From the NCBI RefSeq assembly GCF_963677005.1, contig NZ_OY781616.1, forward strand, positions 1,777,501-1,841,500: a DNA stretch of 64,000 nucleotides, written 5' to 3'. Source of the stretch: Maridesulfovibrio sp. (lineage in GTDB: Bacteria > Desulfobacterota > Desulfovibrionia > Desulfovibrionales > Desulfovibrionaceae). Positions within the stretch are counted from its first letter, which is position 1. Each line of letters opens with the position of its first letter. A program made the position numbers and the translations under genes. The notes beneath the pieces are model-generated. The model was not told the origin of the DNA. It did not search any database and worked only from the letters and a program-made list of their open reading frames with translations. Of the stretch, positions 46,217 to 61,366 are shown piece by piece.

Positions 46217-47251
46217 CTAACGCCTTTCGTATACCCCGACCCTGTATTCGATCTTCTCGAAAACGAAAGTGAACACGGTCGTGAAAATGAGATAGATTAT
46301 GGCGGCCATGACCAGCACGGTTACATTGAAATATGCGTTGAACATCTGATCCGCCGCACGCATGAGCTCAACCATGGCAATGGTTGAAACAAGGGCGGTA
46401 TCCTTGATGAGCGCGATGAATTCGTTGGCCACCGGCGGTATAATCCGTTTGTACGTCTGGGGGATGATTACCCTGCGCATGGTCTGTGCGTAGGTCATGC
46501 CCAGCGCCTTGGCCGCTTCTGTCTGACCATCGTCAATGGACTCTATCCCCGCTCTGATTATCTCCGCGAGATAAGCCGAATAGTTGATGCCCAGTCCGAT
46601 AAGTGCCGACACCAGCGGGGAAAGGGTTATCCCTATTGCGGGCAGTCCGTAATAGATGAAAAAAAGCTGCAATAGAAGCGGAGTGCCGCGGAAAAACCAG
46701 ATAATGAACCAGCTTATGGCGCAGAAAGGCTGCACCTTGGTTATTCTGCCCAGCGCAATGCACAGTCCTCCAATGGGAGAGACTATCATGGTGAAAAACA
46801 CCAGCACCAGCGTCATGGTAGCGCCCTTGAACAGGTTGGGCATAAACCGTGCGCAGTCGTCCAGAGCCCTGCGCCACTCCGGTTTCGTTTCCCGGTCGAG
46901 CGAGGCCAGAAAGTTCTTTGCTTCCACGTTGCCCGGATAAACGCTTATAACCTGTTCGGCATAGCTGCGTGCCTTTCCCGGATCTTTCATGGAATAACTG
47001 ATCCGGGCAAGCTGCATACGAGAATATACGAACTGTCCGTCATCCCCGTCAGGTCCCGGCGCGGGCACCTGGCTGAACATGGAACACGCCTTGTCAATCT
47101 GCCCTGCGGCAAGGGCGTCACGCCCCTGCTTGAGCAGAGTATCGGCGTCCACTGAAGCGCAGACAGCAGAAACGGAAAGAAGGAGCACAAACAGCAGAAA
47201 GAGCGAGGCAGCCGCCCCGCTCTTTCCGAGTTTAATTCTAAAACTAAGCAT
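46217..47251 (-). CDS. Amino-acid ABC permease fused to a periplasmic TPR-like domain
   Basis: This is a 344-residue protein. The C-terminal 210 residues are a normal polar amino-acid permease (FIIWFFRGTPLLLQLFFIYYG, the EAA loop EAAKALGMTYAQTMRRVIIPQ). The N terminus is unusual: a signal-like helix (residues about 10-32) followed by about 85 residues with two TPR-like helical pairs (ADTLLKQGRDALAAGQIDKAC, MQLARISYSMKDPGKARSYAEQV), which should face the periplasm. Ordinary GlnP/HisM permeases are about 220 residues. The domain may contact the binding protein or the envelope. It lies 3 bp after the binding-protein gene. Confidence 0.88.
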   Translation of the reverse strand: MLSFRIKLGKSGAAASLFLLFVLLLSVSAVCASVDADTLLKQGRDALAAGQIDKACSMFSQVPAPGPDGDDGQFVYSRMQLARISYSMKDPGKARSYAEQVISVYPGNVEAKNFLASLDRETKPEWRRALDDCARFMPNLFKGATMTLVLVFFTMIVSPIGGLCIALGRITKVQPFCAISWFIIWFFRGTPLLLQLFFIYYGLPAIGITLSPLVSALIGLGINYSAYLAEIIRAGIESIDDGQTEAAKALGMTYAQTMRRVIIPQTYKRIIPPVANEFIALIKDTALVSTIAMVELMRAADQMFNAYFNVTVLVMAAIIYLIFTTVFTFVFEKIEYRVGVYERR

Positions 47252-51432: not shown

Positions 51433-52149
51433 TCAAAAAATACTGCCTAAGGCTTTCAGTGCCTTTGAATAATCCCTGCCCATGGGAATCAGTTCAAAAA
51501 CAAGGCCCGGTCGCTTGAGCAGGGCTTTCAGAATAGGGCGGATTCTGGTTCTTCCTTCCTCATCAACCCCTTCCATTGCCTCGCTTGGCACCGCCCTGCT
51601 CCAATCATCACTTATGGCACGGATACAGGCAAAGGGTATCCCTGCTGCTACGGCAGTGTTCGCAACAACCACTGATTCCATATCCGCAGCCAATGCTCCG
51701 GTGCGCTCATAGAGAGTCTGCTTTTCATCGGGAGTCAGAACCGGGCTCTGTACGGTGACAAGAGGACCGCAGGCAAATTCTCCGCAGGCCGGCAGCAGGG
51801 CCTCCCGTGCGGCTTCATCGGCCGCATTTTCCCTCCAGGACGGAATATCGCTGATGTCGGAAACGATGGAGGTGGCTGTTACAGTGGTTCCGGCGCAAAG
51901 CCCCGGAACAAGTCCGCCTGAAACACCTATGCTCAGCAGCAGGTCCGGTTTTTCGGCACATACCGCTGCTGCTGCTTCGGCGGCTCTCTTAATCCCTATG
52001 CCGGAAACAATGCACCGGAACGAAACACCATTTGCAAGCGTGCCTGCCATCATATCGAACCGACCGAAACTTTTTTTCTGCGCTCCCGGAAACACGGCAA
52101 GGGCTTCCTGCTCCATGGCCGCTATTACGACCAAGTTCTTTACTTCCAT
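51433..52149 (-). CDS. hpnG: Hopanoid-associated nucleoside phosphorylase HpnG
   Basis: This is a 238-residue PNP/UDP-phosphorylase family protein. VVIAAMEQEALAV and LLSIGVSGGLVPGLCAG fit the nucleosidase fold, and GALAADMESVVVA carries the nucleoside-binding acidic pair. The segment LTPDEKQTLYERTG and the C-terminal EEGRTRIRPILKALLKRPG match my recollection of HpnG proteins better than Pfs-type nucleosidases. HpnG removes adenine from adenosylhopane, giving the ribosyl form that leads to bacteriohopanetetrol. hpnH, the preceding pathway step, is only 1.4 kb away. The ATG at 52149 follows AGAGG; an upstream TTG would add two residues. MTA/SAH nucleosidase is the alternative. Confidence 0.8.
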   Translation of the reverse strand: MEVKNLVVIAAMEQEALAVFPGAQKKSFGRFDMMAGTLANGVSFRCIVSGIGIKRAAEAAAAVCAEKPDLLLSIGVSGGLVPGLCAGTTVTATSIVSDISDIPSWRENAADEAAREALLPACGEFACGPLVTVQSPVLTPDEKQTLYERTGALAADMESVVVANTAVAAGIPFACIRAISDDWSRAVPSEAMEGVDEEGRTRIRPILKALLKRPGLVFELIPMGRDYSKALKALGSIF

Positions 52150-52290
52150 CTCCAATCCTCTTGCAATGCGCTGATATTAAACAGGTATACGACAGACAAA
52201 ATACTCAGGTCCGAAATTTGACTTACTTTTGATGCCGGAATATTACTTTGGCAATTATTCAAACGTTTAATTTACAGAACGGAATTCAGC

Positions 52291-53400
52291 ATGAGCAACA
52301 GACTATACTTTCTGGACAACCTTAGGGCTGTTACCATTTTCATGGTCGTGGCCCTGCATGTATCACTCTGCTATATGATCTTCGCCCCGTCATGGTGGTT
52401 CGTCATTGATCCGCGTCAGAGCATTTTTTTTACTTATGCAGTCATCCTGATTGATGTCCCGATTATGCCGACCATGTTTTTTCTGGCCGGCTATTTCGCA
52501 CTGTCCTCTATGCAAAGATACGGGCTGTCTGGCTTCTGGACGGCCAAATTCAAACGCATAATCATCCCCTGGATAATCGGAGTACTATTCCTTGCCCCGC
52601 CTGCAATGTACATGATTCTCCTTTCACGCGGCAAGAGTCCGGACTACATGAATTTCTGGGCCAAAACGTTCTGGGTACCCCCCATGTTCAGCCAGTCAGT
52701 ATTCTGGTTTCTGGGCATACTGACGCTGTTTTACATGATCCTTTCCGCGCTATACAATTTTTTCCCGGTACTGCGCAGCCAATCCAGACGCAGTATGATC
52801 CCGTCACCACTACTGCACATTATCTTTATAGCCATCACGACCAGTCTGTTTCTGTCCATGAACCAATTTTTCCCGGCAGACACATGGATTAACGACTACT
52901 ATATTTTTACCTTCGAACCACTGCGTATTTCAATCTACCTGCTTTATTTCTGGCTGGGTATACTTGCGTGGAAACGGAACTGGTTCACCAGACAGGGATA
53001 CACTCCCAGACTGCTTCCGTGGCTTGTTCTGTCTGTTTTATCCGCTGTGTTTTACACTCATTTCAAATTCCAGATGCACACAAACGGCACGGAACTGGCT
53101 GTACAGGCGAGCAACGCATTGGGATTCAATACATTTGCCTTTTCCATAGCGATGACCGGAATTTCCTTTTTCAAAAAATTCGTCAACAGCAGTGCTCCGG
53201 TATGGAAATCCTTTGCCGCAAGCTCCTATGGAATTTACCTGCTTCACTCCCTGGCAGTATACTACGGGGCCTATTACCTGCTCCGGTTTGATGCATCCCC
53301 GTTCATAAAGGCCCCGCTGCTGCTGGTCGGCTCTACCCTTGTCTGCTGGATCGTCACCGCACTGCTGAGGAAAAACAGAATCATGGCCGGAATTATCTGA
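52291..53400 (+). CDS. Acyltransferase-3 family membrane protein
   Basis: This 369-residue protein has about ten membrane helices and the acyltransferase-3 start, LYFLDNLRAVTIFMVVALHVSL, with the family His in the first helix. SYGIYLLHSLAVYY is the usual late motif. Members O-acylate sugars, lipids or peptidoglycan at the inner membrane. It lies on the opposite strand between hpnG and hpnH, so a link to hopanoid or surface glycan acylation is possible but unproven. No strong ribosome-binding site is visible. A hairpin terminator follows. Confidence 0.88.
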   Translation: MSNRLYFLDNLRAVTIFMVVALHVSLCYMIFAPSWWFVIDPRQSIFFTYAVILIDVPIMPTMFFLAGYFALSSMQRYGLSGFWTAKFKRIIIPWIIGVLFLAPPAMYMILLSRGKSPDYMNFWAKTFWVPPMFSQSVFWFLGILTLFYMILSALYNFFPVLRSQSRRSMIPSPLLHIIFIAITTSLFLSMNQFFPADTWINDYYIFTFEPLRISIYLLYFWLGILAWKRNWFTRQGYTPRLLPWLVLSVLSAVFYTHFKFQMHTNGTELAVQASNALGFNTFAFSIAMTGISFFKKFVNSSAPVWKSFAASSYGIYLLHSLAVYYGAYYLLRFDASPFIKAPLLLVGSTLVCWIVTALLRKNRIMAGII

Positions 53401-53560: not shown

Positions 53561-54574
53561 TCAGTCTACTTTCACGCCTTTGAGCGCGAGCATCATGCCC
53601 TTGAGCGGCCTTCTGACCGAGTCTGCTACAGCGGTCGGTTCGAAACCGCAGTGAACCATGCAGTTCGAGCAGCGCGGATCGTTGCCTACGCCGAACTTGT
53701 CCCATTCGGTTTCTTCCATCAGCTCTTTGTAGGAGGAGACGAAACCGTCTTCGAGCAGATAGCAGGGACGCTGCCAGCCGTGTACGGAGCGGCAGGGGTT
53801 ACCCCAGGGAGAGCATTTGTAATCCTGATTTCCGGCAAGGAAATCCAGATAGAAACTGCTGTGGCTGAAATCCCATTTTTTGTTCCGGCCGATCTTGAAA
53901 ATTTCGCGAAAAAGCTGCTTGCTCTGTTCACGGGTCAGGAAGCTGTCCTGATCTTCAGCAGCCTCATAGCTGAATGCAGCAGACAGGGTCATTCCGTCTA
54001 CGCCCAGACTCATGAGAAAATCAAAGAATTCAGCTGCTCCCTCAGCGGTCTGCCCGCCGAACAGGGTCGTGTTGGTGTTGACCCTGAACCCTTTGGACTT
54101 GAGCAGTTTTATCGCACGCACGGCGGACTGGAAAACGCCCTGTTTGCAAACGATCTTGTCATGAACTTCTTCTTTGCCGTCGAGATGAATGTTGAAGGTA
54201 AGGTAAGGGCTGGGCTTGAATTCGCTGATCCGTTCGGGAACCAGGATGCCGTTGGTGCACAGGTAGACGAATTTTTTGCGTCTGGTAAGTTCCTTGACTA
54301 TGGTAGGCATTTCGGGATGCAGCATGGGTTCACCGCCGGGAATGGAGACGATGGGTGCTCCGCACTCTTCTGCGGCGGCAACGCATTCCTCTACGGAAAG
54401 ACGCTGGTTGAGGATGTGCGGGGGCTGGTTGACCTTTCCGCAGCCCTTGCAGCGCAGGTTGCACTGGAACAGAGGCTCAAGCATGAGAACCAGCGGATAA
54501 TGCTTGTTTCCCTTGATGGTCTGGGTAAGAATATATTTGCCGAGTCTAGCTATTTGAATTGCAGGAATTGCCAA
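53561..54574 (-). CDS. hpnH: Adenosyl-hopene transferase HpnH (radical SAM)
   Basis: This 337-residue radical SAM enzyme adds the 5'-deoxyadenosyl group to diploptene, the first side-chain step of extended hopanoids. The cluster-binding motif CNLRCKGC gives C38, C42 and C45. GGEPMLHPEM and the C-terminal SPWGNPCRSVHGWQRPCYLL and CSNCMVHCGFEPTA cysteine motifs are those of HpnH. Length is canonical. The start is TTG at 54574 after AGAGGT; no ATG lies near. It is the last gene of the hpnO-hpnN-PhnD-TPR-hpnH run. Confidence is high. Confidence 0.94.
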   Translation of the reverse strand: MAIPAIQIARLGKYILTQTIKGNKHYPLVLMLEPLFQCNLRCKGCGKVNQPPHILNQRLSVEECVAAAEECGAPIVSIPGGEPMLHPEMPTIVKELTRRKKFVYLCTNGILVPERISEFKPSPYLTFNIHLDGKEEVHDKIVCKQGVFQSAVRAIKLLKSKGFRVNTNTTLFGGQTAEGAAEFFDFLMSLGVDGMTLSAAFSYEAAEDQDSFLTREQSKQLFREIFKIGRNKKWDFSHSSFYLDFLAGNQDYKCSPWGNPCRSVHGWQRPCYLLEDGFVSSYKELMEETEWDKFGVGNDPRCSNCMVHCGFEPTAVADSVRRPLKGMMLALKGVKVD

Positions 54575-54610
54575 GGTATCAACCTCTTTTTCCGCCCTGG
54601 TCCGGCGGGT

Positions 54611-55327
54611 TTATTTTTTAGCGGAGCAGGCTTTCACAAGCTTTTCACAGGCGTCCACTTTCAAAAGTTTCTCATGGTAGCTTTTGCTGGAAATGGCCGT
54701 TTTGTACTCTGCACAGGCCTTTTCCTGTTCATCGTCTTCAAGAAGAGCCGTTGCAAGCCCGAGCCGGTTCATGGCGAAATCCGGGGCCACTTTCACAGCT
54801 TTTTCATAATATTCAAGAGCCTTATCCAGACTGCCGACGCTTATCGGAGCGGACGGGGCTTTGAGGTACAATTCGCCGAGCATGCGGTCCGGACCGCCGA
54901 AATCGACCTCCGGAGCAAGTTTCGACGCAAGAAGTGCTTCTTGCTCCATGACAGGCACAAGGTCAAGTCCCTTGACCGGAGCAAGCTGAGCCTCTTTAGC
55001 AACTAAATAAGCCAAAAGATAGTGTCCGAGGCCGGAGTCCGGCTTTTTTTGCAGAAATTGACGCAAGACAGCCTGACTCTGTTTGGCGTAATCGGCACTT
55101 TTGACCGTACCGCTTTCCAGAAGCCATGCGGAACATGCAGCGGACTGCAGGATATCCGAATCATTTTTACCGGTTGCCAGAACTTCCGCCTGAGCGCGGG
55201 AACAAGGCTTCCAGAGAACCACGCCTCCGGCATTGTATTCAAAAAGAGGCAGATCATACCGGGCAGCGGAACATCCGCAGCAGACAAGCAGCAACAACAA
55301 TAGAACCGTGCGCAATGGAAGTCTCAT
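54611..55327 (-). CDS. TPR-containing putative lipoprotein in the hopanoid operon
   Basis: This is a 238-residue exported protein. A hydrophobic signal ends at LVCCGCSAARY, close to but not a perfect lipobox, with acylation likely at the last Cys. TPR-like helices follow (about 65-230), for example SLDKALEYYEKAVKVAPDFAMNRLGLATALLEDD. It resembles TatT-like or other TPR adaptor lipoproteins. The ATG at 55327 shares one base with the stop of the PhnD-like gene after an AGGAG site; a GTG at 55330 is also in frame. This coupling implies it works with the PhnD-like protein and HpnN. It may be an envelope adaptor for hopanoid movement. Confidence 0.75.
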   Translation of the reverse strand: MRLPLRTVLLLLLLVCCGCSAARYDLPLFEYNAGGVVLWKPCSRAQAEVLATGKNDSDILQSAACSAWLLESGTVKSADYAKQSQAVLRQFLQKKPDSGLGHYLLAYLVAKEAQLAPVKGLDLVPVMEQEALLASKLAPEVDFGGPDRMLGELYLKAPSAPISVGSLDKALEYYEKAVKVAPDFAMNRLGLATALLEDDEQEKACAEYKTAISSKSYHEKLLKVDACEKLVKACSAKK

Positions 55328-56109
55328 CACTTAAGCTCCTTGTCGGCAGGGCCGAACCCGGTTGTCTGTAGGAGCTTGAGCAGACCTGCTGCCGAAGGAT
55401 CCTTTGCCATGTCCAGCAATACTGCCTGCAAACGCAGAGCATCATCATCCACCTTGTCGAACCAGACCACCGGACTGGTGGGCAGTTTTCCGGAAGTGTA
55501 CACAACCTTGGTGTTTCCGTAGCGGTCCGACCCTTCAACCACCGAATATTGCGCGCCGTCCAGGCAGACTCCAACAGCACGCCCCTTATTGACCTTGCGC
55601 AGCACGCGCAGGGCATTATGAGTTCCTTCAATGGAAAAGGAAGTCTTCTCTTTTCCACCGAAAAGGATTGCGGTGGACTCCGGCGTGTAAAGCATGGAGC
55701 CGTAAACCGTTCCCTTGATATCCCGGACGGAATCCGGCCCGTCAGCAGGCACGAGCAGCCGCCAGACATCCTTGCTCTGCCCCTGCGGCATGGTCGAGGC
55801 TACGGGAACCATGTTGAACTTGCTGCTGAAGCTCATGAAAAAGGTAAGGTCGGTAATCCCCCAGGCAGGCTTGTCTGCGCTTAGGCCGGACAGAGCAGCC
55901 TGAAGATCATTGTAGTACACGCCCTTTACCGGGACACCCAGTTTTTTGCTCATGTACCCGGCCAGTTCATCCATAACCGGCTGTGCTTCGGCCGTATTGC
56001 CGGGCTGCCCCGGCTGGATAACCGCAAAGTCGAATCGTCCTGCCGCAAAGGAGGAAGCGGCAAAGACGAAAACCGAAAGCAACGCGAAAAGCAGTATCTT
56101 TCTGAACAT
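55327..56109 (-). CDS. PhnD-like periplasmic binding protein in the hopanoid operon
   Basis: This 260-residue protein has a cleavable signal peptide (cut near ASSFAAG, residue 23). A PhnD/SsuA/transferrin-type fold follows: GNTAEAQPVMDELAGYMSKKLGVPV, DKPAWGITDLTFF and IKGTVYGSMLYTPESTAILFGG. Classical PhnD proteins bind phosphonates for ABC import, but no ABC permease or ATPase is nearby. It lies 3 bp after hpnN and overlaps the TPR gene. Many hopanoid clusters instead carry HpnM, an MlaC-like lipid carrier. A carrier role for hopanoid or its precursor is an attractive inference, not shown by the sequence. Confidence 0.78.
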   Translation of the reverse strand: MFRKILLFALLSVFVFAASSFAAGRFDFAVIQPGQPGNTAEAQPVMDELAGYMSKKLGVPVKGVYYNDLQAALSGLSADKPAWGITDLTFFMSFSSKFNMVPVASTMPQGQSKDVWRLLVPADGPDSVRDIKGTVYGSMLYTPESTAILFGGKEKTSFSIEGTHNALRVLRKVNKGRAVGVCLDGAQYSVVEGSDRYGNTKVVYTSGKLPTSPVVWFDKVDDDALRLQAVLLDMAKDPSAAGLLKLLQTTGFGPADKELK

Positions 56110-56112
56110 AGA

Positions 56113-58767
56113 CTATTTTCCCTTGATCTTTTCAATAAGTCTGAACACGGCCGGAAGCACAACCATGCAACCCACGAGACAGGTGGCCGATCCGGTGACC
56201 ATGATCCCTCCCAGTGAGGCGAGTCCCCGGTGATGGGCCAGCAGAAGTCCTCCGAAACCTATCATGGTCGTGCAGAAACTCAGCCCGACAGCTACCGGCG
56301 TGCTGGTATGGTAAAGCCTTTCTCCCTCGGTAAGCTCCTTCCAGCGGGCCAGAAAATGCACCCCTCCGTCAACACCGATGGCAATTAAAATGGGCACCGC
56401 GAAAAAATTGGCCAGATTGAAGCTAAGGCCGGTAAACCCCATTACCTCCAGCAGCCAGAATATACCGGCAACAAGCGGCAGAAGCGCCATAATAACGTAA
56501 CTGATGCTGAACGAGGTAAGGAACAGTATCAGCGAGACCAGAATTACCGTCAGCCCGGCAGCCTCAAGAAAAGTCTCGCGCATGAGCAGCGAAGACTCGT
56601 GAACCACCACGGGTACTCCGGTCACATCGGGATCGACCCGGCGCAGGTCGGCTACAAATCCGGTAAGCTTGTCAAAATCCCAGACATTGTCAACGGGCGA
56701 AACCTTGATCATGTAACGGCCGTCTTTGCCTACGTACATGGACCGCAACTGTTCCGGAAGGTTGTCCGGGGTTACGGAGCGCACTTCCAGAATCTCCTTG
56801 AGCCAGCGGAATGAATCCGAAAGTTCCGTCACCAGTCCGCTTTGTAGCGGAGCAAGGTTGAGCGTCACCGCCGGGTTCTCCTCGATCATATCGATACATT
56901 TTTCAGCCTTGTCGACAATGGCCGAAACCTGATCCAGCTCCTTCCGCGCTCCGGCCGAAAACAGCTTTTCCTCCAGCCCTTCAAGAGACTCGATAAGGTT
57001 GGCCAGAGCCAGCTGCACCTTGTGCGGTTCAATCGTGTGCAGCCCGGACTGTTTAAAATCAATTCCGGCCAGAACCCTGGCTTCGCCGCGCAGAATTTCA
57101 GCTTTTTCCTTCTGGCCCTCGGGCAGGTAATCCAGAATGGACTCTATCCGCCCTACCGAAGGAATCTTTTTCAACTCGGCGGTCAGTCGGCGCACACCCG
57201 CAAGATCCGGGCTGGTCATGACCGCAAACCATGTTGATTCATCTGATTCGTTGATAAGCACATGCTCGTATTCAACGGATTCCAGCCCCTTGGCCTGCAG
57301 TTCCAGAAGATTGTAATTGAATCCGACTTTCTGAAGTCCCGGATAGGCAAGAGCGGAAAGCAGAACGACCGCCAGAAGCACAGGTACAGGACGCGAAACA
57401 ATTTTTTCCATGAACGGCATGGTGGCCATGCGCGGATGGGACGAGGGAAACATGTCCCTGCGCCCGGCAATGAGCAACATGGCAGGCAGCACGGTCAGCA
57501 TGGCAATGAGGCAGAAAATGATTCCGGTTCCGCCTACCAGCCCAAGTTCGGCCAGCCCCACGAAGTCCTGCCCCAGTACGGCGTAAAATGCGCAGACCGA
57601 GGTGATACCCCCCAGAAGAACGCCGGGACCGGTATGAATAAGAGCCTCTTTGACGGCGTCATCAGGAGTCAGTCCTGCCGCGGTTCCTTCCACGTAGCGC
57701 ATGACAATATGGATACCGAAATCCACCCCGATCCCTACAAGGACCAGTGCAAAGACAATGGAAAGCAGGTTCAGACTGCCCAGAGTCACCAGCGTGAACC
57801 CGAAGGTCCAGGCCATGGCGCAGAACAGGGACACCATGACCAGCATGGGCCGCAGCCAGCCGTGCAGTATAATCATGAACAGAAGTCCCACAGCCACGGC
57901 GGAAATAATCGCGGCAAGGGTCATGTCCTTGTCGGTGGTATGCATCTCGTCCGCTGAAAGCACGGGACGCCCGGTCAGCCCGGCTTCGACCTCGGGGAAT
58001 TCCTGCCGTACCTGATCCAGAGATTCGCGCACGAATTTCAGCGAAGGCCCGATGACATCCATGGCACCGAAATCTTTCTTGGGCAGGATGCGCATGATCA
58101 GGAGCTTGCCGCTGCGGGTAAAGAAATAGTGTATTCCGGCCTTGTCCAGACCGAGTACCGGGCCGCCCTTGGCTGCGGCGTCAGGACCCTGCTCCAGAGC
58201 GGATTCCATGTCACCGACAAACGAACCCAGTGCCCCCATTACCGGGCCGAACATTTCCGGGTCTGCACCGCCGTTTCCGTATTTACCGCCCAGCAGTCCG
58301 GCCGTGATGTTCAGAAATCCGGCAAGCCCCGGTTCCTTGAACCATTCCCGGCCCAGCGGACCGAAATCCTGCGCGAGCTTCACAAACTCCCGCAACTCGT
58401 CCGGGCTGGCGAACATCAGCACTCCCGGCCCCATTTCCCGCGGGGACATAGCGTAATGTACCTCCCGGACAAGATCAGGACGTTTTTCCAGCCGCGAGGC
58501 CAGAACTGTAGCGAACTGCGCGGCCTTATCCCTTCCGGAATCGGTACCGCCGGTTCTGATGACCACGAACATGTATTCCTGATCCCCGAAATTCCTGATC
58601 TGATCAAGGTTGCGTTTCTGAAACGGCAGTTCATGCGAGATAAGGTTGTCCTGATCACTGTCCAGATGCAGCCACAATGCAGATGAAACTCCGCAGGCAA
58701 CCGCCAGAAGAATTCCGCAGACAACCACAAGAACCGGAGCCCGGCGGACCATGTTCCACAGTCCCAT
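56113..58767 (-). CDS. hpnN: Hopanoid transporter HpnN-like RND/MMPL protein
   Basis: This is an 884-residue protein with two MMPL/RND halves: one N-terminal helix, a large periplasmic loop, five more helices around residues 280-470 (VGIGVDFGIHIVMRYVEG), then the pattern repeated (ILIAIGVDGGVHFLARWKEL). HpnN moves hopanoids to the outer membrane in Rhodopseudomonas and Burkholderia. The length (about 870 in known proteins) fits. The ATG at 58767 starts directly before the first helix; the frame is open to a GTG at 58881 and no clear ribosome-binding site decides. Other MMPL lipid exporters are the alternative, but the hpnH/hpnO context favours HpnN. Confidence 0.86.
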   Translation of the reverse strand: MGLWNMVRRAPVLVVVCGILLAVACGVSSALWLHLDSDQDNLISHELPFQKRNLDQIRNFGDQEYMFVVIRTGGTDSGRDKAAQFATVLASRLEKRPDLVREVHYAMSPREMGPGVLMFASPDELREFVKLAQDFGPLGREWFKEPGLAGFLNITAGLLGGKYGNGGADPEMFGPVMGALGSFVGDMESALEQGPDAAAKGGPVLGLDKAGIHYFFTRSGKLLIMRILPKKDFGAMDVIGPSLKFVRESLDQVRQEFPEVEAGLTGRPVLSADEMHTTDKDMTLAAIISAVAVGLLFMIILHGWLRPMLVMVSLFCAMAWTFGFTLVTLGSLNLLSIVFALVLVGIGVDFGIHIVMRYVEGTAAGLTPDDAVKEALIHTGPGVLLGGITSVCAFYAVLGQDFVGLAELGLVGGTGIIFCLIAMLTVLPAMLLIAGRRDMFPSSHPRMATMPFMEKIVSRPVPVLLAVVLLSALAYPGLQKVGFNYNLLELQAKGLESVEYEHVLINESDESTWFAVMTSPDLAGVRRLTAELKKIPSVGRIESILDYLPEGQKEKAEILRGEARVLAGIDFKQSGLHTIEPHKVQLALANLIESLEGLEEKLFSAGARKELDQVSAIVDKAEKCIDMIEENPAVTLNLAPLQSGLVTELSDSFRWLKEILEVRSVTPDNLPEQLRSMYVGKDGRYMIKVSPVDNVWDFDKLTGFVADLRRVDPDVTGVPVVVHESSLLMRETFLEAAGLTVILVSLILFLTSFSISYVIMALLPLVAGIFWLLEVMGFTGLSFNLANFFAVPILIAIGVDGGVHFLARWKELTEGERLYHTSTPVAVGLSFCTTMIGFGGLLLAHHRGLASLGGIMVTGSATCLVGCMVVLPAVFRLIEKIKGK

Positions 58768-58935
58768 GATGAAAGAAATCTGAATATTCTTGAATACGTT
58801 CACGCAATACGTGCCCGCCGGGATACGGACGGGGCTTTTTATGAAAAATCTCAAATAAACAAAGAAGGCAAACCATAGCACAGTCTGCCTTCCATGATAA
58901 ACTCTATTATTTCCGCAGCAGCGGATTTCCGGCTA

Positions 58936-60318
58936 TTAGGATGTCCTTGCTGTCCTTATGCCGAGGTCTTTCACCGTCTTCCAGGCCGAGCCGGTAATCT
59001 TGTGCGCTTCCTTGAGCACATCATCCATTGCGGCCAGAAATTTGTCCACATCCACGTCATTTATCATAAGCGGAGGCAGAATCTTGACCGTATCCAGACC
59101 GTGACCGGCAACCTGGCTTAAAATGTTGTGCTTTTCAAGCAGCGGCATGGTGATCATCTGGCAGAAGAGATCGTTATTCATCTTGTGCAGCAGCTTCCAA
59201 CTGGCCTTCAGAGCCATGGATTTAGGTTCTGCGAACTGCATGCCGATCATCAGTCCTTTGCCTCGAACCTCGCTGAGCATTTCGTATTTTTCGGTCAGCT
59301 TCTGCATGCCTGCGATAATACGTCCGCCCATTCTGGCAGAATTTTCCACAAGATTTTCTTTCTCCAGCACCTCAATGGTGGCCAGTCCTGCGGCCATGGC
59401 AAGGTCGTTCTGACCGAAAGTGTTGGAATGCGCGAAACAGCGTTCCATGGAATCAAAAATCTTTCCATGGATTTCACGGGTGGTGACGATTGCTCCGACG
59501 GGGATGAAACCGCCGGAAAGAGCCTTGGAAATGACCAGAATATCCGGAACAATTCCCCAATGCTCCACCGCGAACATCTTTCCGGTCCGCCCCAGCCCGC
59601 ACTGAACTTCATCGGCAATCATGTAGGTGCCGTAGCGGTCACAAAGCTCCCGTGCTCCTTTAAGGTAATCATCATCGGGAACGAAAACGCCCTTGCCCTG
59701 CACGGTCTCGAAAATGAATGCTCCGACATCTCCGCCGCGAAGGGCCTCTTCAAGAGCATCAAGGTCATTGAAAGGAACGGGTATACAGCCGGGCAGCAGA
59801 GGCTCGTTACGTTCCCTGAATTCAGGGTTTGCATTTACGGAAAGCGCTCCCAGAGTCAGACCGTGGAAAGCATGATGGCAGTGTACTATCTTATGCTTGC
59901 CGCTGGCCTGGCGGGCGAACTTGAGAGCCCCTTCCACACCTTCCGTACCGGAATTGGTGAAAAAAACGGCTTCAAGATTACCCGGAGTTATCTCCGCCAG
60001 TTTTTCGGCGAGCATACCGGAAAGTACTCCGAGGTCCATCTGAACAAGGCTCGCGGTTTTGGCATCGATGGTATCATGCAGCACTCGCGCCACATGGGGG
60101 TGGTTGCGGCCTATGTTGTAGACCCCGAACCCGGCGAGGAAATCAAGAACCTTAACACCGTTGGCATCCGTAAGGTATGCCCCTTCCGCGGAAACGTAAT
60201 TCCTGTCATACCCGATTACTTCCAGAACACGCACGAACTGGGGGTTAACAAACTTGCGGTGCAGGGTATAAGCCTCCGCAAGCCTTTCTTGATATTTTTC
60301 TACAATCTCAGTACTCAT
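58936..60318 (-). CDS. hpnO: Aminotransferase HpnO (aminobacteriohopanetriol synthesis)
   Basis: This is a 460-residue class III PLP-dependent aminotransferase. The PLP lysine is K265 (ISKALSGGFIPVG), with D236 in IADEVQCG and FFTNSGTEGVEGALKFAR at the phosphate-binding site. The N-terminal RFVNPQFVRVLEVIGYD-type segment and neighbouring hpnN/hpnH point to HpnO, which converts the oxidised ribosyl chain of hopanoids to aminobacteriohopanetriol. Without context it could be called an ornithine or acetylornithine aminotransferase. GGAG lies about ten bases before the ATG. It is divergent from ispH over a 199-bp region and probably begins the hopanoid operon. Confidence 0.85.
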   Translation of the reverse strand: MSTEIVEKYQERLAEAYTLHRKFVNPQFVRVLEVIGYDRNYVSAEGAYLTDANGVKVLDFLAGFGVYNIGRNHPHVARVLHDTIDAKTASLVQMDLGVLSGMLAEKLAEITPGNLEAVFFTNSGTEGVEGALKFARQASGKHKIVHCHHAFHGLTLGALSVNANPEFRERNEPLLPGCIPVPFNDLDALEEALRGGDVGAFIFETVQGKGVFVPDDDYLKGARELCDRYGTYMIADEVQCGLGRTGKMFAVEHWGIVPDILVISKALSGGFIPVGAIVTTREIHGKIFDSMERCFAHSNTFGQNDLAMAAGLATIEVLEKENLVENSARMGGRIIAGMQKLTEKYEMLSEVRGKGLMIGMQFAEPKSMALKASWKLLHKMNNDLFCQMITMPLLEKHNILSQVAGHGLDTVKILPPLMINDVDVDKFLAAMDDVLKEAHKITGSAWKTVKDLGIRTARTS

Positions 60319-60517: not shown

Positions 60518-61366
60518 ATGGTTAAAGTTATAAGAGCCGAGACAGCAGGGTTCTGCATGGGGGTTGACCTGGCCCTCAACAAACTGGACTCGCTCATTGA
60601 TAAGAATGAAAACGGCAAAATATATATCCTCGGTCCGATCATCCACAACCCGCAGGTTCTGGAGGACTACGAAAAAAAAGGCGTAATCACCGCACACACG
60701 CCGGATGACGTCCCCGAAGGAGCCTACGGAGTCATCCGGGCTCATGGAATACCCAAAAACGCGGAAGAAGAACTGCGTTTACGGGGAGTAAACGTCATTG
60801 ATGCCACCTGCCCGAAGGTGAAAAAAGCGCAGTTGCTCATCAAGAAAAACACTGAAGATGACCGGATTCTTCTCCTTTACGGAGAAGACAGCCACCCGGA
60901 AGTTAAAGGACTTTTAAGCTATGCCCCGTCCGGCACACACCTTTTCGACTCCATAGAGGAACTGGAGGCCATTAAACTCTACCCGGACAAGAAATACTGT
61001 CTCGCCGCCCAGACAACTCAGGACCGCAGTGTATATGAAGAAAGCATCCGTTTCCTTGAGGGCAAGGGCATCGACTTTGTAACGCTGAATACCATCTGTG
61101 ATGCAACGCGCCAGAGACAGGAAGAAGCTATATCCCTTTCCCGTAAAGTAGATCACATGATCGTTGTCGGCGGCCGCATCAGCGGAAACACCCGCAGGCT
61201 GGTGCAGGTTGTCGAAACAGCCGGTACAAAATGCACCCATGTTGAAGTTGCGGCAGAACTGCCTCTTGATGAACTGAAGGAGATAAAGACAATAGGGCTA
61301 ACTGCCGGGGCATCAACTCCGAAGCACCTTGTGGACATTATCCAGCAGATTCTGGAAAAGCTTTAA
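60518..61366 (+). CDS. ispH: 4-hydroxy-3-methylbut-2-enyl diphosphate reductase IspH
   Basis: This 282-residue iron-sulfur enzyme of the MEP pathway makes IPP and DMAPP, the precursors of squalene and hopanoids. Cluster ligands C13 (GFCMGV), C98 (IDATCPKV) and C194 (NTICDATRQRQ) are present. Substrate-binding H43 (IIHNPQV), H76 (RAHG) and H126 (DSHPEV) are present too. The ATG at 60518 follows AAGGAGA; the frame is open 177 bp further upstream with no conserved residues. It has its own terminator. The position next to hpnO suggests shared control of hopanoid supply. Confidence 0.96.
   Translation: MVKVIRAETAGFCMGVDLALNKLDSLIDKNENGKIYILGPIIHNPQVLEDYEKKGVITAHTPDDVPEGAYGVIRAHGIPKNAEEELRLRGVNVIDATCPKVKKAQLLIKKNTEDDRILLLYGEDSHPEVKGLLSYAPSGTHLFDSIEELEAIKLYPDKKYCLAAQTTQDRSVYEESIRFLEGKGIDFVTLNTICDATRQRQEEAISLSRKVDHMIVVGGRISGNTRRLVQVVETAGTKCTHVEVAAELPLDELKEIKTIGLTAGASTPKHLVDIIQQILEKL

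What the first reader, a model, noticed from the sequence alone, without database searches (positions are those of the whole stretch)
53561..58767. PhnD-like binding protein and TPR lipoprotein locked between hpnH and hpnN
Four minus-strand genes run hpnN, PhnD-like, TPR lipoprotein, hpnH with spacings of 3 bp, a one-base stop/start overlap and 36 bp. No ABC transporter genes accompany the PhnD-like protein. Known hopanoid clusters often pair HpnN with HpnM, an MlaC-like carrier. Here a solute-binding-protein fold and a TPR lipoprotein occupy that place, which suggests a different periplasmic route for hopanoids to the outer membrane.
Basis: partly seen in the sequence, partly recalled or inferred. 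Interest (0 to 1): 0.65.

Follow-up and report, generated by a model that had tools for sequence, protein, structure and literature searches.

The report
Bst-type hopanoid export operon, sulfate reducers
In a group of mostly anaerobic bacteria, genes that build the bacterial membrane lipids called hopanoids sit in one operon with relatives of a recently described three-part sterol carrier system, which suggests that the same kind of machinery also moves hopanoids to the outer membrane.

Summary
The "PhnD-like" and "TPR lipoprotein" genes are homologues of BstB and BstC, the periplasmic and outer-membrane parts of the BstABC sterol transporter of Methylococcus (eLife 2024); 7t1m and 7t1s are the best fold matches. 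Before them lies a divergent HpnN, after them a genuine HpnH. The block hpnN-bstB-bstC-hpnH is kept in 17 of 17 genomes of the genus. It recurs in named loci, 29 of 30 of them labelled Deltaproteobacteria or sub-groups: hpnN adjoins in 24 of 25 with room, bstC in 27 of 28, hpnH lies in the locus in 23 of 25. None of 46 carrier genomes has a curated-score HpnM or a squalene-epoxidase-family match; 42 of 45 tested have squalene-hopene cyclase. So the cargo is more likely a hopanoid than a sterol. A same-family genome without the BstB-like gene (G031) has curated-score HpnN, HpnM and HpnL instead. HpnN-like, BstB-like and BstC-like proteins all fall below the curated cut-offs, and the HpnN-like ones form their own clade. 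I read it as a hopanoid-dedicated variant of the Bst system. Binding, transport and direction are inferred, not shown.

The parts
53561..54574 (-). hpnH, adenosyl-hopene transferase (radical SAM)
   Evidence: TIGR03470 523.3 bits, cut-off 225.05; Pfam Radical_SAM + DUF3463
54611..55330 (-). BstC-like TPR lipoprotein (ATG start at 55327, GTG at 55330); proposed outer-membrane acceptor
   Evidence: NF045602 BstC 74.9 bits, below cut-off 350; PDB 7t1s E 1.7e-13, fourth after TPR proteins scored over many repeats; AlphaFold2 model pLDDT 90.6, best fold match 7t1s Z 17.8, next 16.7; signal-peptide Cys in 14 of 15 aligned members
55327..56109 (-). BstB-like (PhnD-fold) periplasmic binding protein; proposed periplasmic hopanoid carrier
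   Evidence: NF045601 BstB 64.9 bits, below cut-off 350; PDB 7t1m E 1e-12 single sequence, 1.7e-26 profile; AlphaFold2 pLDDT 88.4, best fold match 7t1m Z 22.2, next 19.1
56113..58767 (-). HpnN-like RND/MMPL inner-membrane transporter (an upstream GTG at 58881 would extend it)
   Evidence: TIGR03480 HpnN 536.7 bits, below cut-off 751.85; NF045600 BstA 295.8, below cut-off 1400; PDB HpnN 6wu0 E 2.2e-55; clade of BstBC-linked HpnN 100/100
58936..60318 (-). class III aminotransferase, candidate HpnO-like enzyme at the head of the block
   Evidence: Pfam Aminotran_3; upstream of hpnN in 16 of 16 fetched genus loci and found in 15 of 21 named loci with room; assignment as HpnO is inference
51433..52155 (-). 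HpnG-like phosphorylase
   Evidence: TIGR03468 156.8 bits, below cut-off 187.1; in the locus in 16 of 16 fetched genus loci
60518..61366 (+). ispH, divergent neighbour (isoprenoid precursor supply)
   Evidence: ORF; neighbour in 16 of 16 fetched genus loci; name recalled from the sequence, not scanned

Best explanation
This is a hopanoid-dedicated variant of the BstABC lipid-transport architecture. The divergent HpnN (RND, inner membrane) lifts bacteriohopanepolyols, made with the help of the neighbouring HpnH, HpnG-like enzyme and probably the aminotransferase, out of the inner membrane. The BstB-like bilobed protein carries them across the periplasm in a hydrophobic cleft. The BstC-like TPR lipoprotein, anchored in the outer membrane, receives them. 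In these bacteria BstB+BstC take the place that HpnM (MlaC-like) holds near other HpnN proteins. Shown: gene content, order, conservation, homology, fold match, no curated-score HpnM, no squalene-epoxidase-family match. Inferred: cargo, carrier role, direction, outer-membrane site of the lipoprotein.
For: Homology to BstB/BstC by profile, sequence and fold. The M. capsulatus proteins bind 4-methylsterols and were proposed as a conduit to the outer membrane (PMC10942540; abstract, sections). Order kept in 17 of 17 genus genomes, 4 of 4 distant genomes fetched (two with 1.4-1.8 kb between bstC and hpnH) and the named loci: hpnN 24 of 25, bstC 27 of 28, hpnH in the locus 23 of 25 with room. Squalene-hopene cyclase over cut-off in 27 of 30 named-locus genomes and 17 of 17 genus genomes, together 42 of 45 distinct carriers tested. 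Squalene-epoxidase family in 0 of 46 carriers, 2 of 2 sterol-Bst genomes. HpnM over cut-off in 0 of 46. MlaC-like gene adjoins HpnN in 24 of 36 comparison loci, in none of 30 named Bst loci or 16 genus loci. Same-family G031 has HpnN, HpnM and HpnL over cut-off, HpnA just below, and no BstB hit. The 31 BstBC-linked HpnN form one clade. Of 69 BstB cavity positions 47 are mostly hydrophobic here, 48 in BstB; Glu118/Tyr120 are Asp/Trp in 43 of 44.
Against: No binding, transport or localisation data. The HpnN-, BstB- and BstC-like proteins all fall below the curated HpnN, BstA, BstB and BstC cut-offs. M. capsulatus Bst proteins preferred sterols over hopanoids in a mixed extract, so the fold alone does not predict hopanoid binding. 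G028 has a lone BstB-like gene, no hpnN or hpnH nearby and no cyclase. L110 has no bstC between bstB and hpnH; L115 has other DNA where hpnN should be; L095 and L113 have no hpnH in the locus. Three of 30 named-locus genomes show no cyclase. 44 of 46 carriers keep an MlaC-like gene that could also serve HpnN. The squalene-epoxidase model also rings in E. coli and Caulobacter, so its hits in the sterol-Bst genomes are not specific. The cavity's hydrophobic share (47 of 69, G and P counted as hydrophobic) is only modestly above background (93 of 169). The BstC fold margin is small.
Confidence: 0.68

Rival explanations
1. BstB/BstC-like proteins are lipid chaperones or acceptors for periplasmic hopanoid tailoring or sensing, and outer-membrane delivery is done by other means.
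For: They adjoin biosynthetic genes as closely as the transporter: hpnH 36 bp away in the window, aminotransferase in 15 of 21 named loci with room.
Against: The gene directly before bstB is the RND transporter (24 of 25); the same RND-BstB-BstC order occurs in both sterol-Bst genomes found; HpnH, the HpnG-like protein and the aminotransferase show no export signal by eye (ORFs).
Confidence: 0.12
2. The module works inwards: it retrieves or takes up hopanoids or environmental sterols from the outer membrane.
For: PhnD-type proteins serve uptake, and BstC's superfamily, the TRAP T-components, is described as implicated in import.
Against: [quoted passage not shown] 2011 as cited in PMC10942540 and PMC12583986, passages; not read itself). 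Most carriers have squalene-hopene cyclase.
Confidence: 0.08
3. The PhnD-like protein is an orphan phosphonate or oxyanion binding protein that sits in the operon by chance.
For: Pfam Phosphonate-bd match (67 bits); fold shared with PhnD, PtxB, AioX.
Against: BstB is the best match by sequence and by fold. In the printed alignment to AioX the stretch SDPDSNSG is replaced. Operon conservation across many lineages.
Confidence: 0.03
4. HpnN here works with the ordinary MlaC of the Mla system, and BstB/BstC handle a different lipid.
For: An MlaC-like hit in 44 of 46 carrier genomes, in an mlaF-D-C-A operon in the window's genome.
Against: That gene is not near hpnN in any of the 30 named loci or 16 genus loci, while bstB adjoins hpnN; the BstBC-linked HpnN are a clade of their own.
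Confidence: 0.09

Closest known systems
BstABC, bacterial sterol transporter of Methylococcus capsulatus (Zhai et al., eLife 2024, PMC10942540)
   Same: RND protein, PhnD-fold periplasmic binding protein and TPR-type lipid-binding protein, in the same gene order in both sterol-Bst genomes found here; BstB 7t1m and BstC 7t1s are the best fold matches.
   Different: Linked to hopanoid, not sterol, genes; no squalene-epoxidase-family match in carriers; all three proteins far below the curated Bst cut-offs; the RND protein scores higher against HpnN than against BstA (536.7 vs 295.8).
HpnN-HpnM hopanoid transport of hpn clusters (TIGR03480, TIGR03481; structure 5KHS)
   Same: HpnN-type RND transporter in a cluster with hpnH and an hpnG-like gene; PDB HpnN is the best solved relative.
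   Different: No curated-score HpnM; BstB/BstC-like genes instead; HpnN below the curated cut-off and in a separate clade.
PhnD / PtxB / AioX phosphonate-phosphite binding proteins (PF12974)
   Same: Bilobed fold; Pfam family.
   Different: No ABC partner genes adjoining; BstB is nearer in sequence and fold; different residues at the aligned SDPDSNSG stretch of AioX.
Tp0956 and TPAT T-components
   Same: TPR-like helical fold; 3u64 Z 13.9, 8g53 Z 16.0.
   Different: No TRAP genes seen in the block; 7t1s is closer (Z 17.8, 25% identity), though only about 1 Z unit above the next TPR chain.

Membership tests
BstABC sterol transporter | BstB, BstC and BstA curated model scores (350, 350, 1400 bits) | tested here: not met
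   64.9, 74.9 and 295.8 bits
BstABC sterol transporter | RND + PhnD-fold + TPR lipoprotein genes in this order | tested here: met
   reference order
BstABC sterol transporter | genome makes sterols (squalene epoxidase) | tested here: not met
   PF08491 in 0 of 46 carrier genomes, 2 of 2 sterol-Bst genomes; the model also rings in E. coli and Caulobacter
BstABC sterol transporter | fold of BstB and BstC | tested here: met
   7t1m Z 22.2 (next 19.1); 7t1s Z 17.8 (next 16.7); the BstC margin is small
BstABC sterol transporter | binds C-4 methylated sterols | not testable with these tools
   needs purified proteins
HpnN (TIGR03480 / NF052374) | curated score (751.85 / 1100 bits) | tested here: not met
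   536.7 / 337.1 bits
HpnN (TIGR03480 / NF052374) | linked to hopanoid genes in a hopanoid-making genome | tested here: met
   hpnH in the same block; squalene-hopene cyclase elsewhere in the genome; hopanoid production itself not measured
HpnM partner (TIGR03481) | HpnM over 160.1 bits in the genome | tested here: not met
   0 of 46 carrier genomes; 2 of 7 comparison genomes; G031 181.6 bits
PhnD phosphonate-binding protein | curated PhnD score (261.1 bits) and adjoining ABC partner genes | tested here: not met
   30.8 bits; no phosphonate ABC genes beside it
HpnH (TIGR03470) | curated score 225.05 bits | tested here: met
   523.3 bits

The most novel reading that the evidence does not exclude
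The three-part RND + BstB + BstC machine is primarily a hopanoid exporter of anaerobic Deltaproteobacteria that replaced HpnM, and the sterol transporter BstABC of a few methanotrophs is a later re-use of it for another triterpenoid. The module is then a general exporter of polycyclic triterpenoids with swappable cargo.
Probability: 0.33. Interest if true: 0.78.

Novelty: new variant of a known kind. Interest (0 to 1): 0.62.

Why it matters
How hopanoids cross the periplasm is open: HpnN has solved structures, while the function of HpnM is called elusive (PMC12583986, passages). This operon gives a concrete candidate carrier and acceptor, both with solved homologues, and a natural contrast within one bacterial family (BstBC in one genus, HpnM in another genome). 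It also ties bacterial sterol and hopanoid export to one architecture and names lineages in which the route can be tested by gene removal.

Tried and rejected
Considered and rejected: orphan phosphonate binder; endogenous sterol as cargo (0 of 46); a curated-score HpnM elsewhere in the genome. Led nowhere: the placement of sterol BstA in the HpnN tree is unresolved (long branch; the test of one clade with the BstBC-linked HpnN gave p-AU 0.32), so common origin of the two RND proteins is neither shown nor rejected. The assignment of the aminotransferase as HpnO could not be tested; no HpnO model was among the 25 of 69 families shown.

Limits and rows dropped. One search reached only relatives near the hopanoid type (36% identity or more), so looser relatives elsewhere are not counted. 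Of the 39 places scoring about 480-585 bits against TIGR03480, one is the window's own; I fetched 33 of the other 38 (four are Bst-type), and 7 of the 17 over the cut-off. Left out: G248:C248, G335:C128, G314, G196, G058. From the HpnN trees I dropped L047, L055, L061, L076; three are the same contigs as L092, L090, L107, but L061 (G330) is not a duplicate and should have stayed. Genus rows were thinned to the window, four loci, L086 and L087. One search used 39 of 69 rows. MlaC adjacency rests on a single-sequence phmmer search with the window genome's MlaC. Gene calls in scripts are simple ORF calls. The lack of BstB in G031 rests on the single-protein search; BstC was not sought there. Figure 2D of PMC10942540, a gene-neighbourhood network, could not be seen; it may show hopanoid neighbours.

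Full report
What is there. On the minus strand at 60318-53561 lie a class III aminotransferase, an HpnN-like RND protein, a PhnD-fold protein with a signal peptide, a TPR lipoprotein, and hpnH. An HpnG-like gene lies at 51433-52155, on the far side of a plus-strand acyltransferase gene. HpnH is secure (523.3 bits, cut-off 225.05). The RND protein is HpnN-like (536.7 bits, cut-off 751.85) and nearer to HpnN than to BstA (295.8). The PhnD-like protein's best NCBIfam model is BstB (64.9), ahead of PhnD (30.8). The TPR protein's best model is BstC (74.9). Both Bst cut-offs are 350, so these are relatives, not curated members.

Relation to BstABC. By sequence the PhnD-like protein finds 7t1m (MCA1014, BstB) at E 1e-12; the only other chain reported with E up to 1 is at 0.77. 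A profile of 14 family members finds 7t1m at 1.7e-26, against 1.3e-4 for AioX. The TPR protein finds 7t1s (BstC) at 1.7e-13 over residues 91-204, fourth in the list after TPR proteins scored over many repeats. AlphaFold2 models (pLDDT 88.4 and 90.6) match 7t1m best (Z 22.2; next 19.1) and 7t1s best (Z 17.8; next 16.7). The second margin is narrow for a helical repeat. The eLife paper (PMC10942540: abstract and sections 5, 8, 10, 12, 13 seen, passages searched) reports sterol binding by BstB, BstC and the periplasmic domain of BstA. It notes Deltaproteobacteria in the BstC cluster. In the text seen it does not link the system to hopanoid genes; its neighbourhood figure could not be seen.

Conservation. 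BstB-like hits occur in 18 of 58 near relatives searched: all 17 genomes of the genus, plus G028. The order aminotransferase-hpnN-bstB-bstC-hpnH is kept in all 16 fetched genus loci and in the window. Among 395 genomes of the phylum 70 have HpnH over its cut-off. Of 71 genomes (these plus G028) six have a BstB-like hit by profile. The four distant ones show hpnN-bstB-bstC-hpnH; in two of them (L055, L061) 1.4-1.8 kb separates bstC from hpnH, and three of four have the aminotransferase. A scan of 84,980 species gave 30 named loci: 29 labelled Deltaproteobacteria or sub-groups, and one Methylophilaceae-labelled MAG on a 2-Mb contig (L101). Where the contig has room, hpnN adjoins in 24 of 25, bstC in 27 of 28, and hpnH is in the locus in 23 of 25 (22 on the same strand within 2.5 kb). 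The aminotransferase is present in 15 of 21 and an MlaC-like gene in 0 of 30. Exceptions: L115 (other DNA upstream of a bstB cut by the contig end), L110 (no bstC), L095 and L113 (no hpnH in the locus), L096 (hpnH on the other strand), and G028 (lone bstB-like gene between ispH and an hpnG-like gene; no cyclase).

Cargo. Squalene-hopene cyclase is over the cut-off in the window's genome, in 17 of 17 genus genomes and in 27 of 30 named-locus genomes (missing in G463, G475, G481). Two of the 30 are genus members counted again, so 42 of 45 distinct carriers tested have it; the 46th, G330, was not tested. The squalene-epoxidase family is absent in 46 of 46 distinct carriers and present in 2 of 2 sterol-Bst genomes; the model also rings in the E. 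coli and Caulobacter controls, so only its absence is informative. An endogenous sterol is therefore unlikely. Desulfovibrio species are reported to make aminobacteriohopanetriol, D. salexigens among those analysed (PMC5100885, passages), which fits the aminotransferase in the block (inference). That the window's genome is a Desulfovibrionaceae is inferred from the titles of L086 and L087, whose contig lengths equal those of two genus genomes.

HpnM is replaced. HpnM over its cut-off occurs in 0 of 46 carriers and 2 of 7 comparison genomes. 44 of 46 carriers have weaker MlaC-like hits, mostly one, which in the window's genome is in an mlaF-D-C-A operon (gene names read by eye). Among 36 non-Bst HpnN loci fetched, an MlaC-like gene adjoins HpnN in 24; five have none adjoining and seven over-cut-off loci were not scored. 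Most of the 24 have no hpnH in the fetched stretch, so their cargo is not established. The cleanest contrast is G031, of the window's family: cyclase over cut-off, no BstB-like hit, HpnN over cut-off (895 bits), then HpnL (277 bits, over) and, one gene from HpnN on the other strand, HpnM (181.6 bits, cut-off 160.1); HpnH is over its cut-off, HpnA just below. In the five Bst-type genomes no second HpnN-like match listed exceeds 74.3 bits.

Trees. In a 69-row tree the 31 BstBC-linked HpnN lie on one side of one branch (FastTree, 100). In a 39-row IQ-TREE run the 14 used do so at 100/100. Sterol BstA sits on a long branch; a tree joining it to the BstBC-linked HpnN is not rejected (p-AU 0.32). 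BstB over its cut-off was found in 2 of 369 genomes drawn from the class of the L101 genome; three more had weaker matches, one of them the L101 genome itself. Both sterol-type loci have RND, BstB and BstC in the same order on one strand.

Mechanism. Of 69 mapped BstB cavity residues (Table 4 of the paper), 48 are hydrophobic in 7t1m and 47 mostly hydrophobic in 44 family sequences; the background is 93 of 169, with G and P counted as hydrophobic. The polar pair Glu118/Tyr120 of BstB is Asp/Trp in 43 of 44. The aligned AioX stretch SDPDSNSG is not kept; that this loop binds oxyanions in PhnD-type proteins is recalled. The TPR protein's signal-peptide cysteine is present in 14 of 15 aligned members, followed by A, S, M or V. 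This fits outer-membrane sorting by the +2 rule (recalled). The proposed path is HpnN to BstB-like to BstC-like to outer membrane. Every arrow is inferred.

Literature. Searches for BstA/B/C, BstB with hopanoid, HpnN with hopanoid and Desulfovibrio, HpnH likewise, HpnM with HpnN and hopanoid transport listed no paper whose title or abstract start describes BstB/BstC homologues in hopanoid operons; apart from PMC10942540, PMC12583986 and PMC5100885 only listings were seen. The library lacks most subscription papers and all preprints.

Noticed in passing
46217-47251 (-): The permease of the nearby amino-acid-type ABC transporter appears to carry an extra N-terminal segment with TPR-like repeats (read by eye from the ORF).
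   Followed up: no
52291-53400 (+): MdoC-like membrane acyltransferase (NF003014 92 bits, below cut-off 338) between hpnH and the hpnG-like gene; a relative lies in 6 of 16 fetched genus loci, at varying places.
   Followed up: partly
L038 7745-8692 (genome G028): A lone BstB-like gene between ispH and an hpnG-like gene in a same-family genome without squalene-hopene cyclase and without hpnN or hpnH nearby: relic or re-used carrier.
   Followed up: partly
L050, L053, L070, L071, L072, L077: HpnN-like RND genes directly followed by an MlaC-like gene, with what looks by eye like an outer-membrane efflux (TolC-type) gene upstream; hpnH is in the fetched stretch only in L071 and L077. A possible separate lipid-export cassette.
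   Followed up: partly
L101 5902-12921: The complete hopanoid-type block, with a squalene-hopene cyclase in the genome, in a Methylophilaceae-labelled MAG on a 2-Mb contig: the only case outside the Deltaproteobacteria in the scan.
   Followed up: partly
L110 10825-10991: A block with bstB directly followed by hpnH and no bstC: a natural two-part version, if the assembly is right.
   Followed up: partly
L055 12620-13669: An epimerase/dehydratase-like gene inserted between bstC and hpnH, resembling HpnA by eye.
   Followed up: no
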